Assembly: GCF_025642135.1 (NCBI RefSeq) | Contig: NZ_CP106793.1 | Span: 2,711,001-2,775,000 of the forward strand | DNA length: 64,000 nucleotides | From: Streptomyces cynarae | Lineage (GTDB): Bacteria; Actinomycetota; Actinomycetes; Streptomycetales; Streptomycetaceae | Reading direction: 5' to 3' | In this document: piece after piece, positions 55,979-64,000 of the stretch | Position numbering within the stretch: position 1 is the first letter of the stretch | How the letters are laid out: every line of letters starts with the position of its first letter | Program-made: the position numbers and the translations under genes | The notes under the pieces: model-generated | What the model was told of the DNA's origin: nothing | Database searches by the model: none | Seen by the model: the letters and a program-made list of their open reading frames with translations, nothing else

Positions 55979-57214
55979 TCAGCCCGCGGTGACCGGGAGC
56001 TCCTTCACGCCGTTGATCCAGGCGGAGCGCAGGCGGCGCGGGTCGCCTGCCGGTTTGATGTCCGGCATGGTTCCGGCGACCGCGTCGAAGATGAGGTCGA
56101 TCTCCAGGACGGCCAGGGACTTGCCGAGGCAGTAGTGCGGGCCTCCGCCGCCGAACCCGAGGTGCGGGTTGGGGTCACGGGTGATGTCGAAGCCGTCGGG
56201 GTGGTCGAAGACCTCGGGGTCGTGGTTGGCGGAGGAGTAGAAGAGCCCCACGCGGTCGCCCTTCCTGATCTGCTTGCCGCCGAGCTCGGTGTCCTGGGTG
56301 GCGGTGCGCTGGAAGGCGTTGACCGGGGTGGCCCAGCGGACGATCTCCTCGGCAGCGGTACGGGGCCGCTCCCGCTTGTAGAGGTCCCACTGGCCGGGGT
56401 GGGTGAGGAAGCCGTGCATGCCGTGCGTGATGGCGTTGCGGGTGGTCTCGTTGCCGGCGACGGCCAGCATCAGCACGAAGAACCCGAACTCGTCGGAGCT
56501 GAGATTCCCCTCGTCCTCGGCGGCCACCAGCGTCGTCACGATGTCCTTCGCCGGGCACTGCTTGCGGTCGGCGGCCATGTTCATGGCGTACGCGATGATC
56601 TCGGTGGCCGACCGGGCGCCGACCTCCTCGGTGACGGCGTACTCGGGATCGTCGTACGCGATCATCTTGTTTGACCAGTCGAAGATCTTGGCCCGGTCGT
56701 CCTGGGGGATGCCGATCAGCTCGGCGATGGCCTGCAGCGGCAGTTCGCAGGCGACCTGGGTGACGAAGTCGAAGGGGCCGTCGTGGGCGAGGGCACCCTG
56801 CACGATGGCCCGGGCGCGGGCCCGCAACCGCTCCTCCAGGGCCCGGATGGCGCGCGGGGTGAAGCCGCGCTGGACGATCTGGCGGACCCGGGTGTGCTCA
56901 GGCGGGTCCATGTTCAGCATGATCAGCCTCTGGGCGTCGATCGAGTCGCGCTCGATGTGCTCGTTGAAGCGGATGATCGCGGTGTTGAGGGACGAGGAGA
57001 AGATCTCGGGGTGCGTGGAGACGTACTTGACGTCGGCGTGCCGGGTGACCGCCCAGTACCCCTTGTCCTGGAAGCCCGCGAGCCCGGCCGGCTGGGGTAC
57101 CCAGCACACCGGTTCGGCCCGGCGCAGTGCGGCGAACTCCGGCAGGGGCACGCGGTGGTGCAGCAGATCGGGATCGGTGAAGTCGAACCCGTCGGGCAGC
57201 GCGGGACAGGGCAT
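55979..57214 (-). CDS. cytochrome P450, CYP125/CYP142-like (steroid side-chain hydroxylase candidate)
   Basis: A 411-residue P450: I-helix LAVAGNETTRNAITHG, ExxR in AEEIVRWATPVNAF, and heme ligand loop FGGGGPHYCLGKSLA. Segments such as LNMDPPEHTRVRQIVQRGFT, DIPQDDR-like region and RRLRSAWINGVKELPV are close to the CYP125 family that oxidises the terminal carbon of cholesterol side chains. ATG 57214 has GGGAG 7 nt upstream. A KstR-like site lies 50-60 bp upstream and the divergent gene is a FadA6-like thiolase. Electron donor probably the ferredoxin at 47426-47659. Confidence 0.92.
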   Translation of the reverse strand: MPCPALPDGFDFTDPDLLHHRVPLPEFAALRRAEPVCWVPQPAGLAGFQDKGYWAVTRHADVKYVSTHPEIFSSSLNTAIIRFNEHIERDSIDAQRLIMLNMDPPEHTRVRQIVQRGFTPRAIRALEERLRARARAIVQGALAHDGPFDFVTQVACELPLQAIAELIGIPQDDRAKIFDWSNKMIAYDDPEYAVTEEVGARSATEIIAYAMNMAADRKQCPAKDIVTTLVAAEDEGNLSSDEFGFFVLMLAVAGNETTRNAITHGMHGFLTHPGQWDLYKRERPRTAAEEIVRWATPVNAFQRTATQDTELGGKQIRKGDRVGLFYSSANHDPEVFDHPDGFDITRDPNPHLGFGGGGPHYCLGKSLAVLEIDLIFDAVAGTMPDIKPAGDPRRLRSAWINGVKELPVTAG

Positions 57215-57262
57215 GGGCGACTCCCACCATTCTGACGGTCCATCAGGAATTGCGGTGAAGGT

Positions 57263-57276
57263 AGTAACGGGTTCTA
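57263..57276. promoter_or_regulatory. KstR-like operator before the P450 gene
   Basis: AGTAACGGGTTCTA fits TnnAACnnGTTnnA with a single mismatch (first base), 49 bp upstream of the P450 ATG. Confidence 0.55.
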
Positions 57277-57387
57277 CAAGCCGCAAGGGGCACGGCGCCC
57301 CGATTGCGTGCGAGACTCGTGCAGATCACGACTTCGGAGGCTGCACGACCCTTGCGGCCCTGGACACCCTGTCAGCAAACTGCACAC

Positions 57388-57411
57388 AGAACTAGAACGC
57401 GTACTAGTTCT
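57388..57411. promoter_or_regulatory. KstR-like operator before the thiolase gene
   Basis: AGAACTAG-aacgcgta-CTAGTTCT is a perfect 8-bp inverted repeat with an 8-bp spacer, and the centre TAGAACGCGTACTA fits the KstR pattern with one mismatch. It is the strongest palindrome of the set. Confidence 0.65.
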
Positions 57412-57451
57412 GCGTGGCGGGTGGGCCGGGACGCCCGCGCCGCGCGGGTGA

Positions 57452-58907
<1,456 letters not shown>

Positions 58908-59078
58908 AACGTCCCTCCATCACGTGCCGGATCAGCTCCGCCGAGTCCCTGAGGGAGAGCGCGGCGGCCCGATGCGCGACTTCATCGTGTGAGACGGCAG
59001 TTCCTCGGCTTCCGACGTGTGTGGCGGAGCGGATAGTTCCGCAGCGTACGATGACATGCCCTATACGAGGGGTGTGCC

Positions 59079-61661
59079 GTGGACCGAGCAGATGTCGGCG
59101 CGCTGGTTCAGTCCGCCGTAGACGGCGACGCAGCGGCGTGGAAGGCGCTGGTGGAAGCACTGAGCCCACTGGTGTGGTCCGTGGTGCGGGCGCACCGGCT
59201 CCCCGACGCCGACGGGCACGAGGTCTATCAGACCGTGTGGTTCCGCTTCGCCCAGCACCTGGGGAGGATCCCGGAACCAGAGAAGGCGGGGGTGTGGCTG
59301 GCGAGCACAGCGCGGCATGAGTGCCTGAAGGTACTCAAGAGCTCAAGACGGCTGTCCCAGACAGACGGTCCGCAGCTCCCGGACTCGGGAAGTGAAGACC
59401 GCACGACCGAGCAGTCCTTCCTCGACTCCGAGGAGGCGGCAGCCGAGGCTGAGCGAAGCCGGATCATATGGCAGGAGTTCGAGGAACTCGGGGAGCGGTG
59501 CAGGCAGTTGCTGCGCGTGCTCATTGCCTCACCGCCGCCCAGCTACGCGGAGGTTTCCGCCGCACTGGGTATCCCCGTCGGCAGCATCGGGCCCATGCGC
59601 CAGCGCTGCCTGCGCCGCCTTCGAGCCCGTATCGAGGCCAGGGAAAACAGTGGGAGCGACAGTGCTGACGACGCTGCCGCTCCCGAGCAGTCCACACCAC
59701 ACTGCAACTTCTCGTTCCCTGGCCCCGCTGCCGGTCCCCGAAAGGTATTCATTGCCGGTCACGGGAGCCATTCGCATTCGGTTCCTCTTCATGGCACGCG
59801 CGTAGCCACGTTGCCAGCACCCTTCGAACTTCGGCAACTCAACGCCGACCTCGCCGAAATCTGGGAAGCCGAAGCCACCGAAGCGCCGGATGTCCCAGCT
59901 TCGCCAGACGACGAGTCTCAGGCCTCTACGGGCCGGTCGAGGTCGGACCGGGACGGAATCCGTGGTGGGTGGACAACCTCCGACGATGAAGCCGGGGACG
60001 TCGAGAACACCACGGAGCTGACGGGCGAGTTCACGATCGACTACGTCCCACCTGCCTGGTACATGCAGAACGCCCCGGGCACCGCGGGGCCGGCGTCGCA
60101 GGTGCCGGCGGTTGGTCCCACCACCCCGCCTGCGCAGTCGCAGTCGGACACCACTTCGGCGAGTCCTCCCCAGCCTCCTGTCACTCCGCCTTCGGACACC
60201 GGCCCCCCTGAGATCGGCTCGATGGAGCCGCGCTCCCTGGTCGCGGAGTTGGTCGAGCAGACCTCGCCCGGGCGAGTGGTACCGCTGCATGTGCAGATTG
60301 TCCATGGCAGTGAAAGGGGTGTGCAGTTGCGCTCCTTCATGCTCCCGCCCGGCGGGGCCCAGGTGATGGTCACCGTTCACGCTCCTGGCCTTGAGGCCAT
60401 CGATGACCTGTACCAGGAGCTGCACCTGTGGCCCGGCCGGGACTCGGACGTGCTGCTGTTCCGGTTGAGGGCATCGAAGCCGGGGCTGCATGAGGTGACG
60501 GTGCGGGCGTTCCGGGGCGGCACCTTCCTGGGTGAAGTGACATGTCAGACGTCGGTTGGGCACGGAAGTGTCACAAGAGACGGCCCGCAACGCCATGCAT
60601 CGCTGGCCTCCATGGCCTTCGACCCCGGGGAAGTCACTCTCCAGGTCCTGAAGGAGGACGGCGACGGCGCCTTCAGCTTCCAACTGATCAGCGAGACGTT
60701 CTACGCGCGGGAGATCGTCGACTTCCGGGCCGGCGACCCCCGCAAAGCCACCGAGGCCATATACGCCGAGCTGAGGAAAGCCGCGAAGGCCGCCGCGACG
60801 GGCGGCGGAGCATCGTGGCTGCCCGACCGTTTGGAGAGTCAAGGCGTAGAGCTGTGGAAATCCGTGGTCCCGCAGCGCATCCAGAGCCAATTCTGGGAAG
60901 AGTCCGACCATGTCACGGCCTTCACCGTCCTGGGGGAGCACGACATCGTCCCCTGGGAACTGCTGTATCCGTTGAACGCGGGATACGAGAACAGAGGCTT
61001 CCTGGCGGAGTGGCTTCCCGTGGTGCGGCGGGTGCACGGGCAGGACCGAGTCCGCAGCCTGCGTCTGCCGGACGTGGCGTTCGTGGTTCCTCCCGGCTCT
61101 CCAGACGACGCGGGCGAGGAAGTGAGATCCCTTCGTGCCCGCTTGGGAACAGCCGTATCCGACGCCGGGGTGTTGACCGAGCGGGCGGCCCTTACCGCGC
61201 TGATCAAGGGCGGCCACGCCGGCCTGCTCCACTTCGCCTGCCACAACGCTTTCACGGGCACCGGCTCGTGCGTGACCATGGCTGACGGACCGTTCGACCC
61301 CATCGACCTCGCGTCGGCCGCACAACTGCGAACCCTGCGCACCCATCGCCCTCTCGTGTTCTTCAACGCCTGCAGAAGCGCCGGGGAGATCGACTGGTTC
61401 GGCGAGAGCCTGGGGTGGGCCCCCCAGTTCCTGACCGCGGGCGCGGGCGCTTTCGTCGGCACCCTCTGGCCCGTACGGTCACGATCCGCGCTGCAGTTCG
61501 CCGAAACCTTCTACGACCAGTTGATCACCCACCGGCAGCCACTCGGCAAGGCTTCGCTCACAGCCCGGCGGACCACCCACGACCTGCACGGAGGCGATCC
61601 GACATGGCTGGCGTACGCCGTGTACGGCAGTCCCGCAGCGACCGTGCACATCAGCGCATAA
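59079..61661 (+). CDS. ECF-type sigma factor fused to a CHAT-domain protease
   Basis: An 860-residue fusion. Residues 1-190: sigma-70 region 2 (LVEALSPLVWSVVRAHRLPD; VYQTVWFRFAQHLGRIPEPE) and region 4 (ELGERCRQLLRVLIASPPPS; GIPVGSIGPMRQRCLRRLRA). Residues 200-390: Pro/Ser/Thr-rich linker. Residues 395-500: beta-sandwich-like. Residues about 600-860: CHAT caspase-like domain with catalytic His722 (LLHFACHNAF) and Cys765 (VFFNACRSAG) and the terminal GGDPTWLAYAVYGSP. GTG start with GAGGGG 7 nt upstream. Operon with a hydrolase 11 bp downstream. Suggests a protease-gated transcription switch or a defence/conflict device. Confidence 0.92.
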   Translation: MDRADVGALVQSAVDGDAAAWKALVEALSPLVWSVVRAHRLPDADGHEVYQTVWFRFAQHLGRIPEPEKAGVWLASTARHECLKVLKSSRRLSQTDGPQLPDSGSEDRTTEQSFLDSEEAAAEAERSRIIWQEFEELGERCRQLLRVLIASPPPSYAEVSAALGIPVGSIGPMRQRCLRRLRARIEARENSGSDSADDAAAPEQSTPHCNFSFPGPAAGPRKVFIAGHGSHSHSVPLHGTRVATLPAPFELRQLNADLAEIWEAEATEAPDVPASPDDESQASTGRSRSDRDGIRGGWTTSDDEAGDVENTTELTGEFTIDYVPPAWYMQNAPGTAGPASQVPAVGPTTPPAQSQSDTTSASPPQPPVTPPSDTGPPEIGSMEPRSLVAELVEQTSPGRVVPLHVQIVHGSERGVQLRSFMLPPGGAQVMVTVHAPGLEAIDDLYQELHLWPGRDSDVLLFRLRASKPGLHEVTVRAFRGGTFLGEVTCQTSVGHGSVTRDGPQRHASLASMAFDPGEVTLQVLKEDGDGAFSFQLISETFYAREIVDFRAGDPRKATEAIYAELRKAAKAAATGGGASWLPDRLESQGVELWKSVVPQRIQSQFWEESDHVTAFTVLGEHDIVPWELLYPLNAGYENRGFLAEWLPVVRRVHGQDRVRSLRLPDVAFVVPPGSPDDAGEEVRSLRARLGTAVSDAGVLTERAALTALIKGGHAGLLHFACHNAFTGTGSCVTMADGPFDPIDLASAAQLRTLRTHRPLVFFNACRSAGEIDWFGESLGWAPQFLTAGAGAFVGTLWPVRSRSALQFAETFYDQLITHRQPLGKASLTARRTTHDLHGGDPTWLAYAVYGSPAATVHISA

Positions 61662-61672
61662 AGGAGTAGCAC

Positions 61673-62869
61673 GTGAAGGATCCGGTCTTCGTCATCCACG
61701 GCGTCGCCAATCGTGACCGGGACGAGTTCACCGCGGCCGTCTCGGCACTTGCTGCGGCGGCCGGAGTCGACATGGTCCCGGTGCACTGGGGTGACCTGGG
61801 TGCGCAGGACCGGTTCATCGACGCCACACTGCCCGTCTACCGCACTGATACGGACACCTTGCGTGACGGCGAGGCACCGGAGCCCGTCATGGCCAAGCAC
61901 TTTGCCGCTGCCCTGTTAACCGAGACGATCGACGAAGTGCGGCAGCTGTCGCTGCTCGATGCCGCCGTCCGCGAACAGCTGAGCGCAGGGAACGACGCGC
62001 AGGACGAGGGGCTGCGAGATAGCGGCCGCGACAAGCTCGATCCCGACGAGATCCTTGAGTACGTGAGGGAGGCGTGGGCCGACACCGAGTGGCTCTGCCG
62101 TACCGACGACGCGCAGTTGCTGCTTGAGACCGGGCGCTCTCTGGCACGGTCACTCTTGGATGAAACCGATCCCGACTACGACGACTCGTATCACGGACTG
62201 CGCGGCGGAGGAACCGATCTTCACAGCCGCGTCCGTTCCCTGGTGCGGCGTCGGCTGAAGGACCTGGACCGTGTCGCGGGCGCAGCCGTTCAGGCGGTGG
62301 GGGCACGGCTGAACCACGCCGTACGCAGCCGGTTCGGGCCCGGCACCACACGCTTCCTCGGCGACGTGCTCGTCTACCAACGCCACCGGGACGCTGTTCA
62401 CGCCCGCGTACGGCAGGTCATCGACGAAGTACACCCCGAACTCGGGCGTAGCTCCGCCCGACCGGTGCGCATCGTGGCCCACAGCCTGGGTGGCGTCATC
62501 GCCGTTGACATGGCCACCGCCACCGCACCCTTGTGGACCGAATCCCTGATCACGTTCGGCTCCCAGGCTGCCTTCTTCCATGTGTGCGATCCCAGAGGAG
62601 GGCAACTGACCCCCTACGGAGGCAGCACGCCCGTGCATCTGCCGGCTTCCCTGAACCGCTGGACCAACCTCTGGGAGCCACTGGACATTCTGGCCTTCGC
62701 CGCTTCCAAGGTGTTCCAGCTGCACGACGGAACCGCTCCGGTGGACCTCCCCGTAAGCCATCAGGCCAGCACGGGCATGTGGACCCACTCGGCGTACTGG
62801 AACCTTCCTCACGTCGCCACAGTCATCGGCGACGTCATGCGTCAGAATCGGCCGCTGGAGAACCAGTGA
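61673..62869 (+). CDS. alpha/beta-hydrolase (lipase/PGAP1-like) partner of the sigma-CHAT protein
   Basis: A 398-residue hydrolase-fold protein: N-terminal oxyanion strand DPVFVIHGVANRDRDEFTAA, nucleophile elbow VRIVAHSLGGVIAVDMATAT (Ser in AHSLGG), a downstream Asp in LWEPLDILAF and His in MWTHSAYWNLPHVA. Residues about 70-210 form a helical insertion rich in Asp/Glu/Arg. GTG start with aaggag 6 nt upstream, 11 bp after the sigma-CHAT stop, so the two are one operon. Possibly a phospholipase-like effector or a signalling hydrolase controlled by the CHAT protease (inference). Confidence 0.85.
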   Translation: MKDPVFVIHGVANRDRDEFTAAVSALAAAAGVDMVPVHWGDLGAQDRFIDATLPVYRTDTDTLRDGEAPEPVMAKHFAAALLTETIDEVRQLSLLDAAVREQLSAGNDAQDEGLRDSGRDKLDPDEILEYVREAWADTEWLCRTDDAQLLLETGRSLARSLLDETDPDYDDSYHGLRGGGTDLHSRVRSLVRRRLKDLDRVAGAAVQAVGARLNHAVRSRFGPGTTRFLGDVLVYQRHRDAVHARVRQVIDEVHPELGRSSARPVRIVAHSLGGVIAVDMATATAPLWTESLITFGSQAAFFHVCDPRGGQLTPYGGSTPVHLPASLNRWTNLWEPLDILAFAASKVFQLHDGTAPVDLPVSHQASTGMWTHSAYWNLPHVATVIGDVMRQNRPLENQ

Positions 62870-63083
62870 GCACGTGAAGCCTGACAGAGCGAAACCCTGT
62901 TGATCGGGGCAGGGCAGGCAGCAGACACCACCGCTGCAGGCGGCCGCTTGTATCCCTGCCCTGAGCTGACGACGAAGCCACTGACGCGCACGTGGATGAG
63001 GGCCGCGAACAGCGTCTTACCAGGAGCGTGAAGGCAGAGCCTTCAATGCTCTGCTGCGTACAGGCTGAACCTCTCTCACCAGG

Positions 63084-63977
63084 TCATTTTTGGGCACAGT
63101 GATGTTTCCGCCACTGGAAGAACCGGTCAGCGGTGTTGGTGATGACGCCGTCGACGCCCCACGACGTCGCGGTCCGCCATTTGCTGTCGCCGTCGACCGT
63201 CCACACGAACGTCTGCACACCGGCCGCGTGGAGTCGGCGCACCGCGTCGGGGTGCGCCTTGAGGCTGTTGAAGTTCACCGCGTAGGCGGCCAGGGAGAAC
63301 TTCCGCGCCGTCGCCACGGGGTCCGCGTCGACCCTGTCCCGGAGCAGGGCCGGCTTGATCTTGTACGGTGAGGCCGCCGCGTGCAGGACGATGTTCTCGT
63401 CGAAGGACTGGACCACGGTGCGTTCGGTCATTCCGGACTCGGAGACCAGGCGCAGGACCTGGTCGACCGCCGCGGGCGTCTGCGGCCCCTTGATCTCCAG
63501 GAGGAACCGGACCGGAAGCGCCTTGACGGCGGACAGCGCCTGACGCAGCGTCGGGACGTGCCCGCCGCCCTTCACCGTCAGCCGGGACACCTCCTGCGCG
63601 GTGAGCTGATCGATGCGGCCGGTTCCGTCGGTCGTGCGGTCCACGGTGGCGTCGTGCATGATGACCGGCTCGCCGTCCTCGGTGACCTGCACATCGGTTT
63701 CCACGTAGTCGGCTCCGTGAGCCGCCGCCGCTTGAAAGGAGGCGATCGTGTTCTCCGGCGCGCGCCGCGGAGAGCCGCGGTGCCCGATGACACGGGTGCC
63801 GGAGCAGTCGACGGCGGGGCTCTTCTGCGGCGCGTGAGCCGCGGGTGTCCCGGGCGTCCGGCCGGTCAGTGCGGAGACGCACGCGGTCGCGACCGCGGCC
63901 GTCGTCACCATGAGTGGCAGCACGTATCTCCGACGCGCTGTCGGACGGGCCGAACCGGGCGTGCCGCGCCGTCCCAT
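63084..63977 (-). CDS. secreted glycerophosphodiester phosphodiesterase
   Basis: A 297-residue GDPD: N-terminal Arg-rich region plus hydrophobic segment (YVLPLMVTTAAVATACVSAL) as signal peptide or anchor, then TIM-barrel motifs VIGHRGSPRRAPENTIASFQ, VETDVQVTEDGEPVIMHD, ATVDRTTDGTGRID and FLLEIKG. It hydrolyses glycerophosphodiesters to glycerol-3-phosphate and an alcohol. The C-terminal TVDGDSKWRTATSWGVDGVI closes the barrel. Downstream gap 62870-63083 holds no recognised gene. Confidence 0.94.
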   Translation of the reverse strand: MGRRGTPGSARPTARRRYVLPLMVTTAAVATACVSALTGRTPGTPAAHAPQKSPAVDCSGTRVIGHRGSPRRAPENTIASFQAAAAHGADYVETDVQVTEDGEPVIMHDATVDRTTDGTGRIDQLTAQEVSRLTVKGGGHVPTLRQALSAVKALPVRFLLEIKGPQTPAAVDQVLRLVSESGMTERTVVQSFDENIVLHAAASPYKIKPALLRDRVDADPVATARKFSLAAYAVNFNSLKAHPDAVRRLHAAGVQTFVWTVDGDSKWRTATSWGVDGVITNTADRFFQWRKHHCAQK

Positions 63978-64000
63978 GTACGCAATCCCCCCGTGGAAGC

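What the first reader, a model, noticed from the sequence alone, without database searches (positions are those of the whole stretch)
59079..62869. Sigma factor fused to a CHAT protease, in operon with a lipase-fold hydrolase: candidate undescribed switch or defence system
Seen directly: an 860-residue protein carries ECF-like sigma regions 2 and 4 at the N-terminus and a CHAT domain with an intact His722/Cys765 dyad at the C-terminus, joined by a long Pro/Ser/Thr linker and a beta-sandwich. Eleven bp later comes an alpha/beta-hydrolase with AHSLGG. Known: CHAT domains are caspase-like proteases used in bacterial conflict systems, often activating effectors by cleavage. Inference: the CHAT part may cut the linker to free the sigma factor, or cleave and activate the hydrolase as a membrane- or lipid-damaging effector while the sigma part drives its own operon.
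Basis: partly seen in the sequence, partly recalled or inferred. Interest (0 to 1): 0.8.

Follow-up and report, generated by a model that had tools for sequence, protein, structure and literature searches.

The report
Caspase switch with captured sigma factor
In this genome, most likely of a Streptomyces, a transcription (sigma) factor is fused to a caspase-like protease and followed by a lipase-like enzyme; related bacteria carry the same protease-and-enzyme pair with many different front ends, so the pair is predicted to be an infection-triggered suicide switch whose sensor can be swapped.

Summary
In detail: 59079-61661 encodes an ECF sigma domain, disordered linker, beta-sandwich and CHAT domain; an alpha/beta-hydrolase follows 11 bp later. 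The CHAT His/Cys dyad is kept in 176 of 176 aligned rows; the hydrolase Ser/Asp/His are near-invariant. Context changes the reading. The beta-sandwich-CHAT core and hydrolase are constant; the N-terminus is swappable (18 BLAST groups in 105 homologues; sigma in 4 of 120 listed). All 6 complete hydrolases found in 392 same-genus genomes lie beside a CHAT gene, with at least 5 kinds of N-terminus. The locus is accessory: a same-species genome has collinear flanks but lacks it. The sigma domain is up to 86% identical to standalone ECF sigmas, was captured as a whole gene and stays under purifying selection. The same sigma, in a broken frame, precedes a CHAT core of another clade. Part of the SCO5717 ATPase lies in the linker. 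Most likely: a swappable-input caspase/hydrolase conflict switch with sigma as input (bait or sensor). Neighbouring caspase and alpha/beta-hydrolase genes, and ECF sigma control by a CHAT protease, are in print; the direct fusion was not found in our searches. No activity was tested.

The parts
58970..64000 (.). segment absent from a same-species genome (G234 has about 457 bp there between collinear flanks); holds sigma-CHAT, hydrolase and a GDPD gene; it ends about 54 bp beyond the window's right end
   Evidence: right edge fuzzy (81% identity for 171 bp just beyond the window, then 97%)
58992..62871 (+). two-gene unit shared with S. violaceoruber NRRL S-981 (L005, 82% DNA identity); no further match in the stretch compared (56001-64000)
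59037..59078 (+). upstream stretch captured together with the sigma gene; GAGGGG Shine-Dalgarno-like site at 59067-59072 and a TACGAT box that could be a -10 (both by eye, inferred)
59079..59642 (+). ECF sigma domain (residues 1-188), whole-gene capture of a 191-aa standalone sigma
59643..60221 (+). disordered Pro/Ser/Thr-rich linker, fast evolving (omega 0.58 between window and L005)
59943..60077 (+). SCO5717 N-terminal module (NF041021, 76 bits) inside the linker; core motif EFTIDYVPPAWY at 60027-60062
60222..60725 (+). constant beta-sandwich (Foldseek resembles CARDB)
60732..61661 (+). CHAT protease domain; His722 codon 61242-61244, Cys765 codon 61371-61373; closest folds separase and Csx29
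61673..62869 (+). partner alpha/beta-hydrolase (398 aa); Ser271 codon 62483-62485; likely triad with Asp338 and His372

Best explanation
A constant CHAT (caspase/separase-fold) protease core and a constant alpha/beta-hydrolase, often encoded side by side and joined from locus to locus to different N-terminal domains, are likely an accessory conflict switch in which the N-terminal domain would be the input, the protease the trigger and the hydrolase the output. In this locus the input is a captured ECF sigma factor. Inferred steps: the sigma domain still folds and engages RNA polymerase or its regulators. When a phage or another stress disturbs that contact, the tethered CHAT domain is released from inhibition. 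It then cleaves the hydrolase next door, or its own linker, and the lipase-like enzyme damages the cell's own membrane or lipids so that infection aborts. Shown here: domain structure, catalytic residues, pairing, N-terminal swapping, capture of the sigma gene, accessory status, purifying selection on sigma and core. Not shown: any cleavage, lipid hydrolysis, defence phenotype or trigger.
For: The core (about 480 aa) is 58-91% identical across the 14 proteins aligned with it. N-terminal regions of at least 60 aa from 105 of 120 listed homologues fall into 18 groups by BLAST single linkage (rough: linkers can merge groups, divergence can split them, and at least two rows, P0037 and P0069, were cut wrongly). 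They include NACHT, MinD-like, vWA, kinase, response regulator-LuxR, HTH, FtsH-ternary X2/X3, DUF7144, Rho_N and sigma, and TIR, LCAT and SPFH by accession (these three names are recalled). Dyad 176 of 176; hydrolase S271, D338, H372 in at least 115 of 121 rows. Pairing from both directions: hydrolase in 15 of 22 close CHAT loci; a CHAT beside 6 of 6 complete hydrolases found in 392 genomes. The pair also occurs in Lindowbacteria, Rhizobacter and another proteobacterial MAG and on a Hymenobacter plasmid next to a recombinase. One hydrolase lies between two CHAT genes in L018, L082 and the Hymenobacter plasmid, as expected if inputs are exchangeable and the output shared. Accessory: hydrolase in 8 of 392 genus genomes, segment absent from the same-species genome, and the two genes have the lowest third-position GC (0.80) of the 28 ORFs listed around them (0.82-0.98 for the rest). 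The CHAT model matches separase (best E 4e-9) and Csx29 (best E 5e-8). Peptidase conflict proteins with diversified sensor domains are in print (PMC10907252, passages).
Against: No assay of any kind. N-termini could be outputs rather than inputs (Kaur et al. favour effector deployment for the related EACC1 layout). 6 of the 20 close loci that are not contig-end pieces have a CHAT core without a neighbouring hydrolase, so the partner is not obligatory or may act from elsewhere. In distant loci it is rare (4 of 43). PADLOC gives no defence assignment (only BovA at E 0.87). The core has no relative in the phage collection. The 13 neighbouring genes scanned are not defence genes.
Confidence: 0.5

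Rival explanations
1. Cargo release: the CHAT domain senses the signal itself, cuts the disordered linker and frees an active sigma factor that switches on a transcriptional programme; the hydrolase is a second, separate effector.
For: Long disordered linker between sigma and core. Sigma keeps 116 of 124 near-invariant positions and median omega 0.16 (window) and 0.27 (L005) against 19 standalone copies. In Craspase a CHAT protease cleaves Csx30, an inhibitor of an ECF sigma (PMC10028731 passages). Kaur et al. propose auto-proteolytic effector deployment for EACC1.
Against: Several other N-termini on the same core are not obvious cargo (NACHT, MinD-like, vWA, DUF7144). Sigma region 4 evolves faster in the one fused pair measured than in any of 166 standalone pairs (omega 0.52, but dS only 0.30). 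No promoter of the sigma was shown.
Confidence: 0.25
2. Targeting device: the sigma domain carries an always-competent protease to RNA polymerase so that CHAT cuts transcription proteins or phage factors bound there.
For: Sigma regions 2 and 4 are retained. Response regulator-LuxR and HTH front ends also exist, consistent with DNA or polymerase addressing.
Against: Does not account for NACHT, MinD-like or DUF7144 front ends or for the hydrolase partner.
Confidence: 0.12
3. Developmental regulator without a conflict role, tied to the SCO5717 growth apparatus through the linker module.
For: The linker carries the NF041021 module that 140 of 150 sampled genus genomes encode, usually once; NCBIfam names the family growth-regulating ATPase.
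Against: Hydrolase in 8 of 392 genomes and segment missing in a same-species genome; the motif was found in 9 of 120 core homologues only; N-terminal swapping is typical of conflict proteins.
Confidence: 0.1

Closest known systems
[quoted passage not shown] 2020, PMC7159879; passages read)
   Same: A caspase-superfamily domain with a neighbouring alpha/beta-hydrolase gene; variable domains; mostly multicellular bacteria.
   Different: No MoxR or vWA gene among the 13 neighbours scanned; the variable domain is N-terminal to a C-terminal CHAT; here it is a sigma factor.
EACC1 / EACC2 caspase systems (PMC7159879 section 33 read; PMC8195603 passages read)
   Same: Constant caspase plus very many swappable domains; many EACC2-type loci carry a separate ECF sigma gene.
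   Different: Polarity reversed (caspase C-terminal, variable part N-terminal); no EACC1 gene upstream; the sigma is in the same chain; a hydrolase partner.
Craspase, type III-E CRISPR (Csx29, Csx30, CASP-sigma; PMC10028731 passages read)
   Same: CHAT protease of the same fold functionally coupled to an ECF sigma factor.
   Different: No TPR hit and no such partner genes in the operon; the sigma is fused to the protease itself.
Standalone 191-aa ECF sigma beside a subtilase gene and a 160-193-aa protein gene
   Same: 80-86% identical sigma; up to 42 bp of shared upstream DNA.
   Different: No CHAT core in the 20 stretches of 12 kb examined; the downstream partner gene is absent from the fusion.

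Membership tests
CHAT protease (PF12770) | profile match over cut-off and His/Cys dyad | tested here: met
   65.3 bits vs 24; H722 and C765 in 176 of 176 rows; separase/Csx29 folds
ECF sigma factor | regions 2 and 4, no region 3 | tested here: met
   TIGR02937 over 20-184, 57.5 vs 42.9 bits; Sigma70_r2 27.7 vs 24; Pfam region 4 not hit on its own
ECF sigma factor | binds core polymerase and promoter DNA | not testable with these tools
   116 of 124 near-invariant positions kept
alpha/beta-hydrolase superfamily | fold and nucleophile-elbow Ser with Asp/His | tested here: met
VMAP ternary system (Kaur et al. 2020) | caspase domain with neighbouring alpha/beta-hydrolase | tested here: met
VMAP ternary system (Kaur et al. 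2020) | MoxR ATPase, vWA protein and VMAP gene beside it | tested here: not met
   13 genes from 50517 to about 8 kb beyond the window's right end scanned, no MoxR or vWA; not every ORF there and not the rest of the genome
EACC1 system | 5' gene with conserved TM EACC1 domain; caspase N-terminal | tested here: not met
   CHAT is C-terminal; the upstream gene is a DUF397 gene on the other strand
Craspase | TPR-CHAT with gRAMP, Csx30 and CASP-sigma | tested here: not met
   no TPR hit in the protein; two-gene unit without such partners
known defence systems in PADLOC-DB | model match | tested here: not met
   only BovA at E 0.87, nothing for the hydrolase

The most novel reading that the evidence does not exclude
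Bacterial integrated decoys: CHAT cores capture copies of the host's own regulators - here a whole ECF sigma gene plus a piece of the ATPase SCO5717 - and use them as bait for invader proteins that attack the real ones, the logic of plant NLR integrated-decoy receptors, with a hydrolase as the shared executioner. The same sigma on two CHAT cores from different clades would be convergent capture of a favoured phage target.
Probability: 0.22. Interest if true: 0.87.

Novelty: new variant of a known kind. Interest (0 to 1): 0.63.

Why it matters
If true, it shows a caspase-fold protease switch whose sensor is exchanged by capturing whole host genes, and a covalent counterpart of the CHAT-sigma link known from Craspase. 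The standalone sigma gene exists for comparison, so the direction of control (sigma as bait or as cargo) becomes testable with few mutants (C765A, S271A, sigma surface mutants, linker swaps). It also offers a natural series of proteins with one protease and many inputs for working out how CHAT proteases are switched on.

Tried and rejected
Rejected: chance fusion or assembly error (five distinct proteins, one branch); sigma as a constant part of the system; a phage- or plasmid-borne gene in Streptomyces (no phage hit for the core, one plasmid hit for the hydrolase, in Hymenobacter). Against a resident sigma that the fusion guards: G000 and the L005 genome hold no close standalone copy (2 of 2; weak evidence, since 102 of 150 genomes have no match either).

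Led nowhere: hydrolase against solved structures by sequence and by Foldseek (best E 0.22, Nir2 DDHD), so substrate class is open; literature search for SCO5717 (none in the library); the roughly 457-bp filler in G234 was not analysed. A search for the CHAT cut site was not done. The AU test does not decide whether the second sigma-CHAT (L018) is a second capture (p 0.88; the constrained tree was even better than the quick one); I infer it from 93% identity to a standalone copy against 82% to the window's sigma and from its separate core clade. The NF041021 module as a whole is poorly conserved among the five fused proteins (8 of 45 columns invariant); only a version of EFTIDYVPPAWY remains in all five. 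The CHAT model has low mean pLDDT (58.4). A masked BLAST of the own SCO5717 fragment against the 120 CHAT proteins found nothing; without masking, other SCO5717 fragments did match. P0010, which I took for an SPFH type by eye, has no such Pfam match.

Dropped rows: L134 from the selection test (an extra residue), and pairs outside dS 0.1-3 (168 of 171 pairs kept for the whole domain, 166 for region 4); every second standalone listed in the trees (60 of 120); 10 of 65 loci from the dyad count.
Full report

Constant and variable parts. A search of 5.8 billion proteins found 296 relatives, 120 listed. Only four of these match as sigma+CHAT over the whole length (69-92% identity); a sigma profile hits only the same four. 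Most others match the C-terminal half (about 54-65% of the query), at 51-90% identity. Pfam gives N-termini as NACHT with NNH1, MinD/ParA-like, vWA, protein kinase, response regulator-LuxR, HTH, FtsH-ternary X2/X3, DUF7144, Rho_N and alpha/beta-hydrolase, and further accessions that I recall as TIR, LCAT and SPFH, plus DUF6232. Of 120 proteins, 105 have at least 60 aa before the core; single-linkage BLAST clustering gives 18 groups, a rough figure since linkers merge groups, divergence splits them and at least two rows were cut wrongly. The CHAT dyad is present in 176 of 176 aligned rows; the 55 locus rows among them were fetched with a pattern holding the His motif.

The partner. From CHAT to hydrolase: 65 loci of the core came from the public genome collection. 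In the 22 Streptomyces or Kitasatospora loci with core identity of 58% or more (L005-L023, L026, and the contig-end pieces L055 and L057), 15 have the hydrolase. In the other 43 loci 4 do (L025, where it lies on the other strand, L049, L056, L062), so 19 of 65 in all. The close loci without it are L008, L010, L014, L015, L020, L026 and the piece L057. From hydrolase to CHAT: 1 of 101 and then 8 of 392 evenly drawn same-genus genomes have the hydrolase, the window's genome among them, two only as fragments; in the second run at most 4 candidates per genome were scored, so 8 is a minimum. All 6 complete copies, the window's included, lie directly beside a CHAT gene on the same strand; the two fragments do not. 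Their N-termini are sigma (window), vWA-like with VWA just under its cut-off (L081), MinD-like with Rho_N (L082), DUF7144 (L083), NNH1 with MinD-like (L084) and one unclassified (L086). In L018 and L082 a second CHAT gene with another N-terminus faces the same hydrolase from the other side. A Hymenobacter plasmid carries CHAT - hydrolase - CHAT beside a recombinase.

An accessory unit. A same-species genome (G234) is 96-97% identical in the long matches on both sides, but window 58970 to about 64054 (just beyond the window's end) is replaced by about 457 bp; its copy of the flanking thiolase gene is 97% identical. The segment holds three genes: sigma-CHAT, hydrolase and GDPD. Against the fused relative in S. 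violaceoruber NRRL S-981 (L005), homology runs from 58992 to 62871, the two-gene unit alone, at 82%. The two genes have third-position GC of 0.80, the lowest of 28 ORFs listed around them. Thirteen neighbours scanned are ordinary genes (beta-lactamase-fold, SnoaL, APH-like, SLT, lipase, P450, thiolase, DUF397, GDPD, two MFS, methyltransferase, DJC28). The core has no match in 50,697 phage records and the hydrolase one match in 72,556 plasmid records.

Where the sigma came from. The sigma domain alone finds standalone relatives of 189-219 aa at 80-86% identity (120 of 1029 listed), one cluster with 367 members. In 150 genus genomes 48 have a match, G000's fused copy among them; all 29 other loci fetched are standalone (189-192 aa); the remaining 18 were not examined as single loci. 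In 20 of 20 extended loci the sigma overlaps by 4 bp a gene for a 160-193-aa protein; a subtilase gene lies upstream (Pfam in L126; similar first ORFs in the four loci inspected); no CHAT core is in these 12-kb stretches. Homologous DNA begins 35-42 bp upstream of the window's GTG and ends at about the end of sigma. So a whole sigma gene with its likely ribosome-binding site was fused. The five fused sigmas form one side of a branch (97/89). The window's sigma keeps 116 of 124 near-invariant positions. Against 19 standalone copies its median dN/dS is 0.16 and that of L005 0.27 (standalone pairs 0.19). In the fused pair, region 4 is at 0.52, which none of 166 standalone pairs reaches, though on a dS of only 0.30. 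Neither G000 nor the L005 genome has a close standalone copy.

A second sigma-CHAT. In S. viridochromogenes NRRL 3413 (L018, reverse strand) the same sigma precedes a CHAT core that is only 62% identical to the window's core and lies in another clade of the core tree. Its sigma is 93% identical to a standalone copy and 82% to the window's. In this draft assembly the sigma reading frame is broken after about residue 40-45, so this copy may be inactive or misread. A second capture is likely but not proven (AU test p 0.88).

The linker module. NF041021 is found in 140 of 150 genus genomes, in 135 of them once. G000 has two: the sigma-CHAT linker and an SCO5717-type gene. A version of the motif EFTIDYVPPAWY is kept in all five fused proteins although the linker is otherwise poorly conserved (36 of 193 columns invariant, against 250 of 310 in CHAT). 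It also lies in MinD-type and some unclassified CHAT proteins (9 of 120 by regular expression, the four sigma types included), and BLAST adds a NACHT type (P0013). That SCO5717 belongs to the Streptomyces ESX (type VII secretion) locus is recalled, not from a call. What the module binds is unknown.

Mechanism. Constant protease, constant hydrolase and exchangeable front end fit a switch with input, trigger and output better than a fixed sigma programme. I commit to the sigma domain as input (bait or sensor), 0.5. The main rival is release of sigma by self-cleavage, 0.25, for which Craspase is the best precedent: there a CHAT protease cleaves Csx30, which inhibits an ECF sigma (PMC10028731, passages). 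All functional steps are inferred.

What is known. Kaur et al. 2020 (PMC7159879; passages; section 33) report that caspase domains in VMAP systems always have a neighbouring alpha/beta-hydrolase gene, and that EACC1 systems join a constant caspase to up to 50 variable domains. PMC8195603 (2021; passages) describes EACC2 caspase loci, the majority of one subset with a separate ECF sigma gene. PMC10907252 (passages) describes conflict proteins with CHAT domains and hypermutated sensors. Work on CATRA caspase systems is cited in PMC8195603 but was not seen. Papers holding 'CHAT domain', 'ECF' and 'sigma factor' in the held library: one, on Craspase. 'CHAT domain' with 'sigma factor', 'Streptomyces' and 'caspase-like': none. 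Four further searches (CHAT with conflict-system terms; caspase with CATRA; CHAT proteases with lipase or antiphage terms; integrated decoys) listed no paper whose title or abstract start describes this fusion; of those listed, passages of PMC7159879, PMC8195603, PMC10907252 and PMC10952713 were seen. Subscription papers are mostly missing from the library. The fusion is therefore filed as a new variant of a known kind.

Noticed in passing
window 59943-60077; G000:C1:6333965-6334090: The NF041021 module of the SCO5717 ATPase occurs in the linker of the sigma-CHAT protein and in some MinD-type, NACHT-type and unclassified CHAT proteins; 140 of 150 genus genomes carry the module, 135 of them once.
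   Followed up: partly
L018:9759-12560 (-): Same sigma family on a CHAT core of another clade in S. viridochromogenes NRRL 3413; sigma frame broken in the draft assembly.
   Followed up: partly
L123-L142: Standalone sigma sits in an uncharacterised cluster: subtilase - sigma - 160-193-aa protein with 4-bp overlap; the last has no Pfam match in the one case scanned.
   Followed up: partly
L018, L082, L175 (Hymenobacter plasmid): One hydrolase between two CHAT genes, with unlike N-termini in L018 and L082.
   Followed up: partly
L030:8276-8812, L040:8431-8946: Diverged actinobacterial CHAT cores are followed by a ~170-aa protein instead of the hydrolase; looks like a Trypco2-type protein by eye only.
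   Followed up: no
window 58626-58907 (-): DUF397 gene with two repeats at the left edge of the accessory segment; the match to G234 is split inside it.
   Followed up: no
window 63084-63977 (-): GDPD phosphodiesterase gene inside the accessory segment; the nearest G234 copy is only 77% identical and elsewhere; it is not part of the unit shared with L005.
   Followed up: partly
window 60222: Some database proteins begin at the methionine matching Met382 of the fusion and consist of the core alone (P0005, P0008); no strong ribosome-binding site precedes it in the window.
   Followed up: no
window 59079-62869: Third-position GC of both genes is 0.80, lower than in the 26 other ORFs listed around them (0.82-0.98), fitting recent acquisition.
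   Followed up: partly
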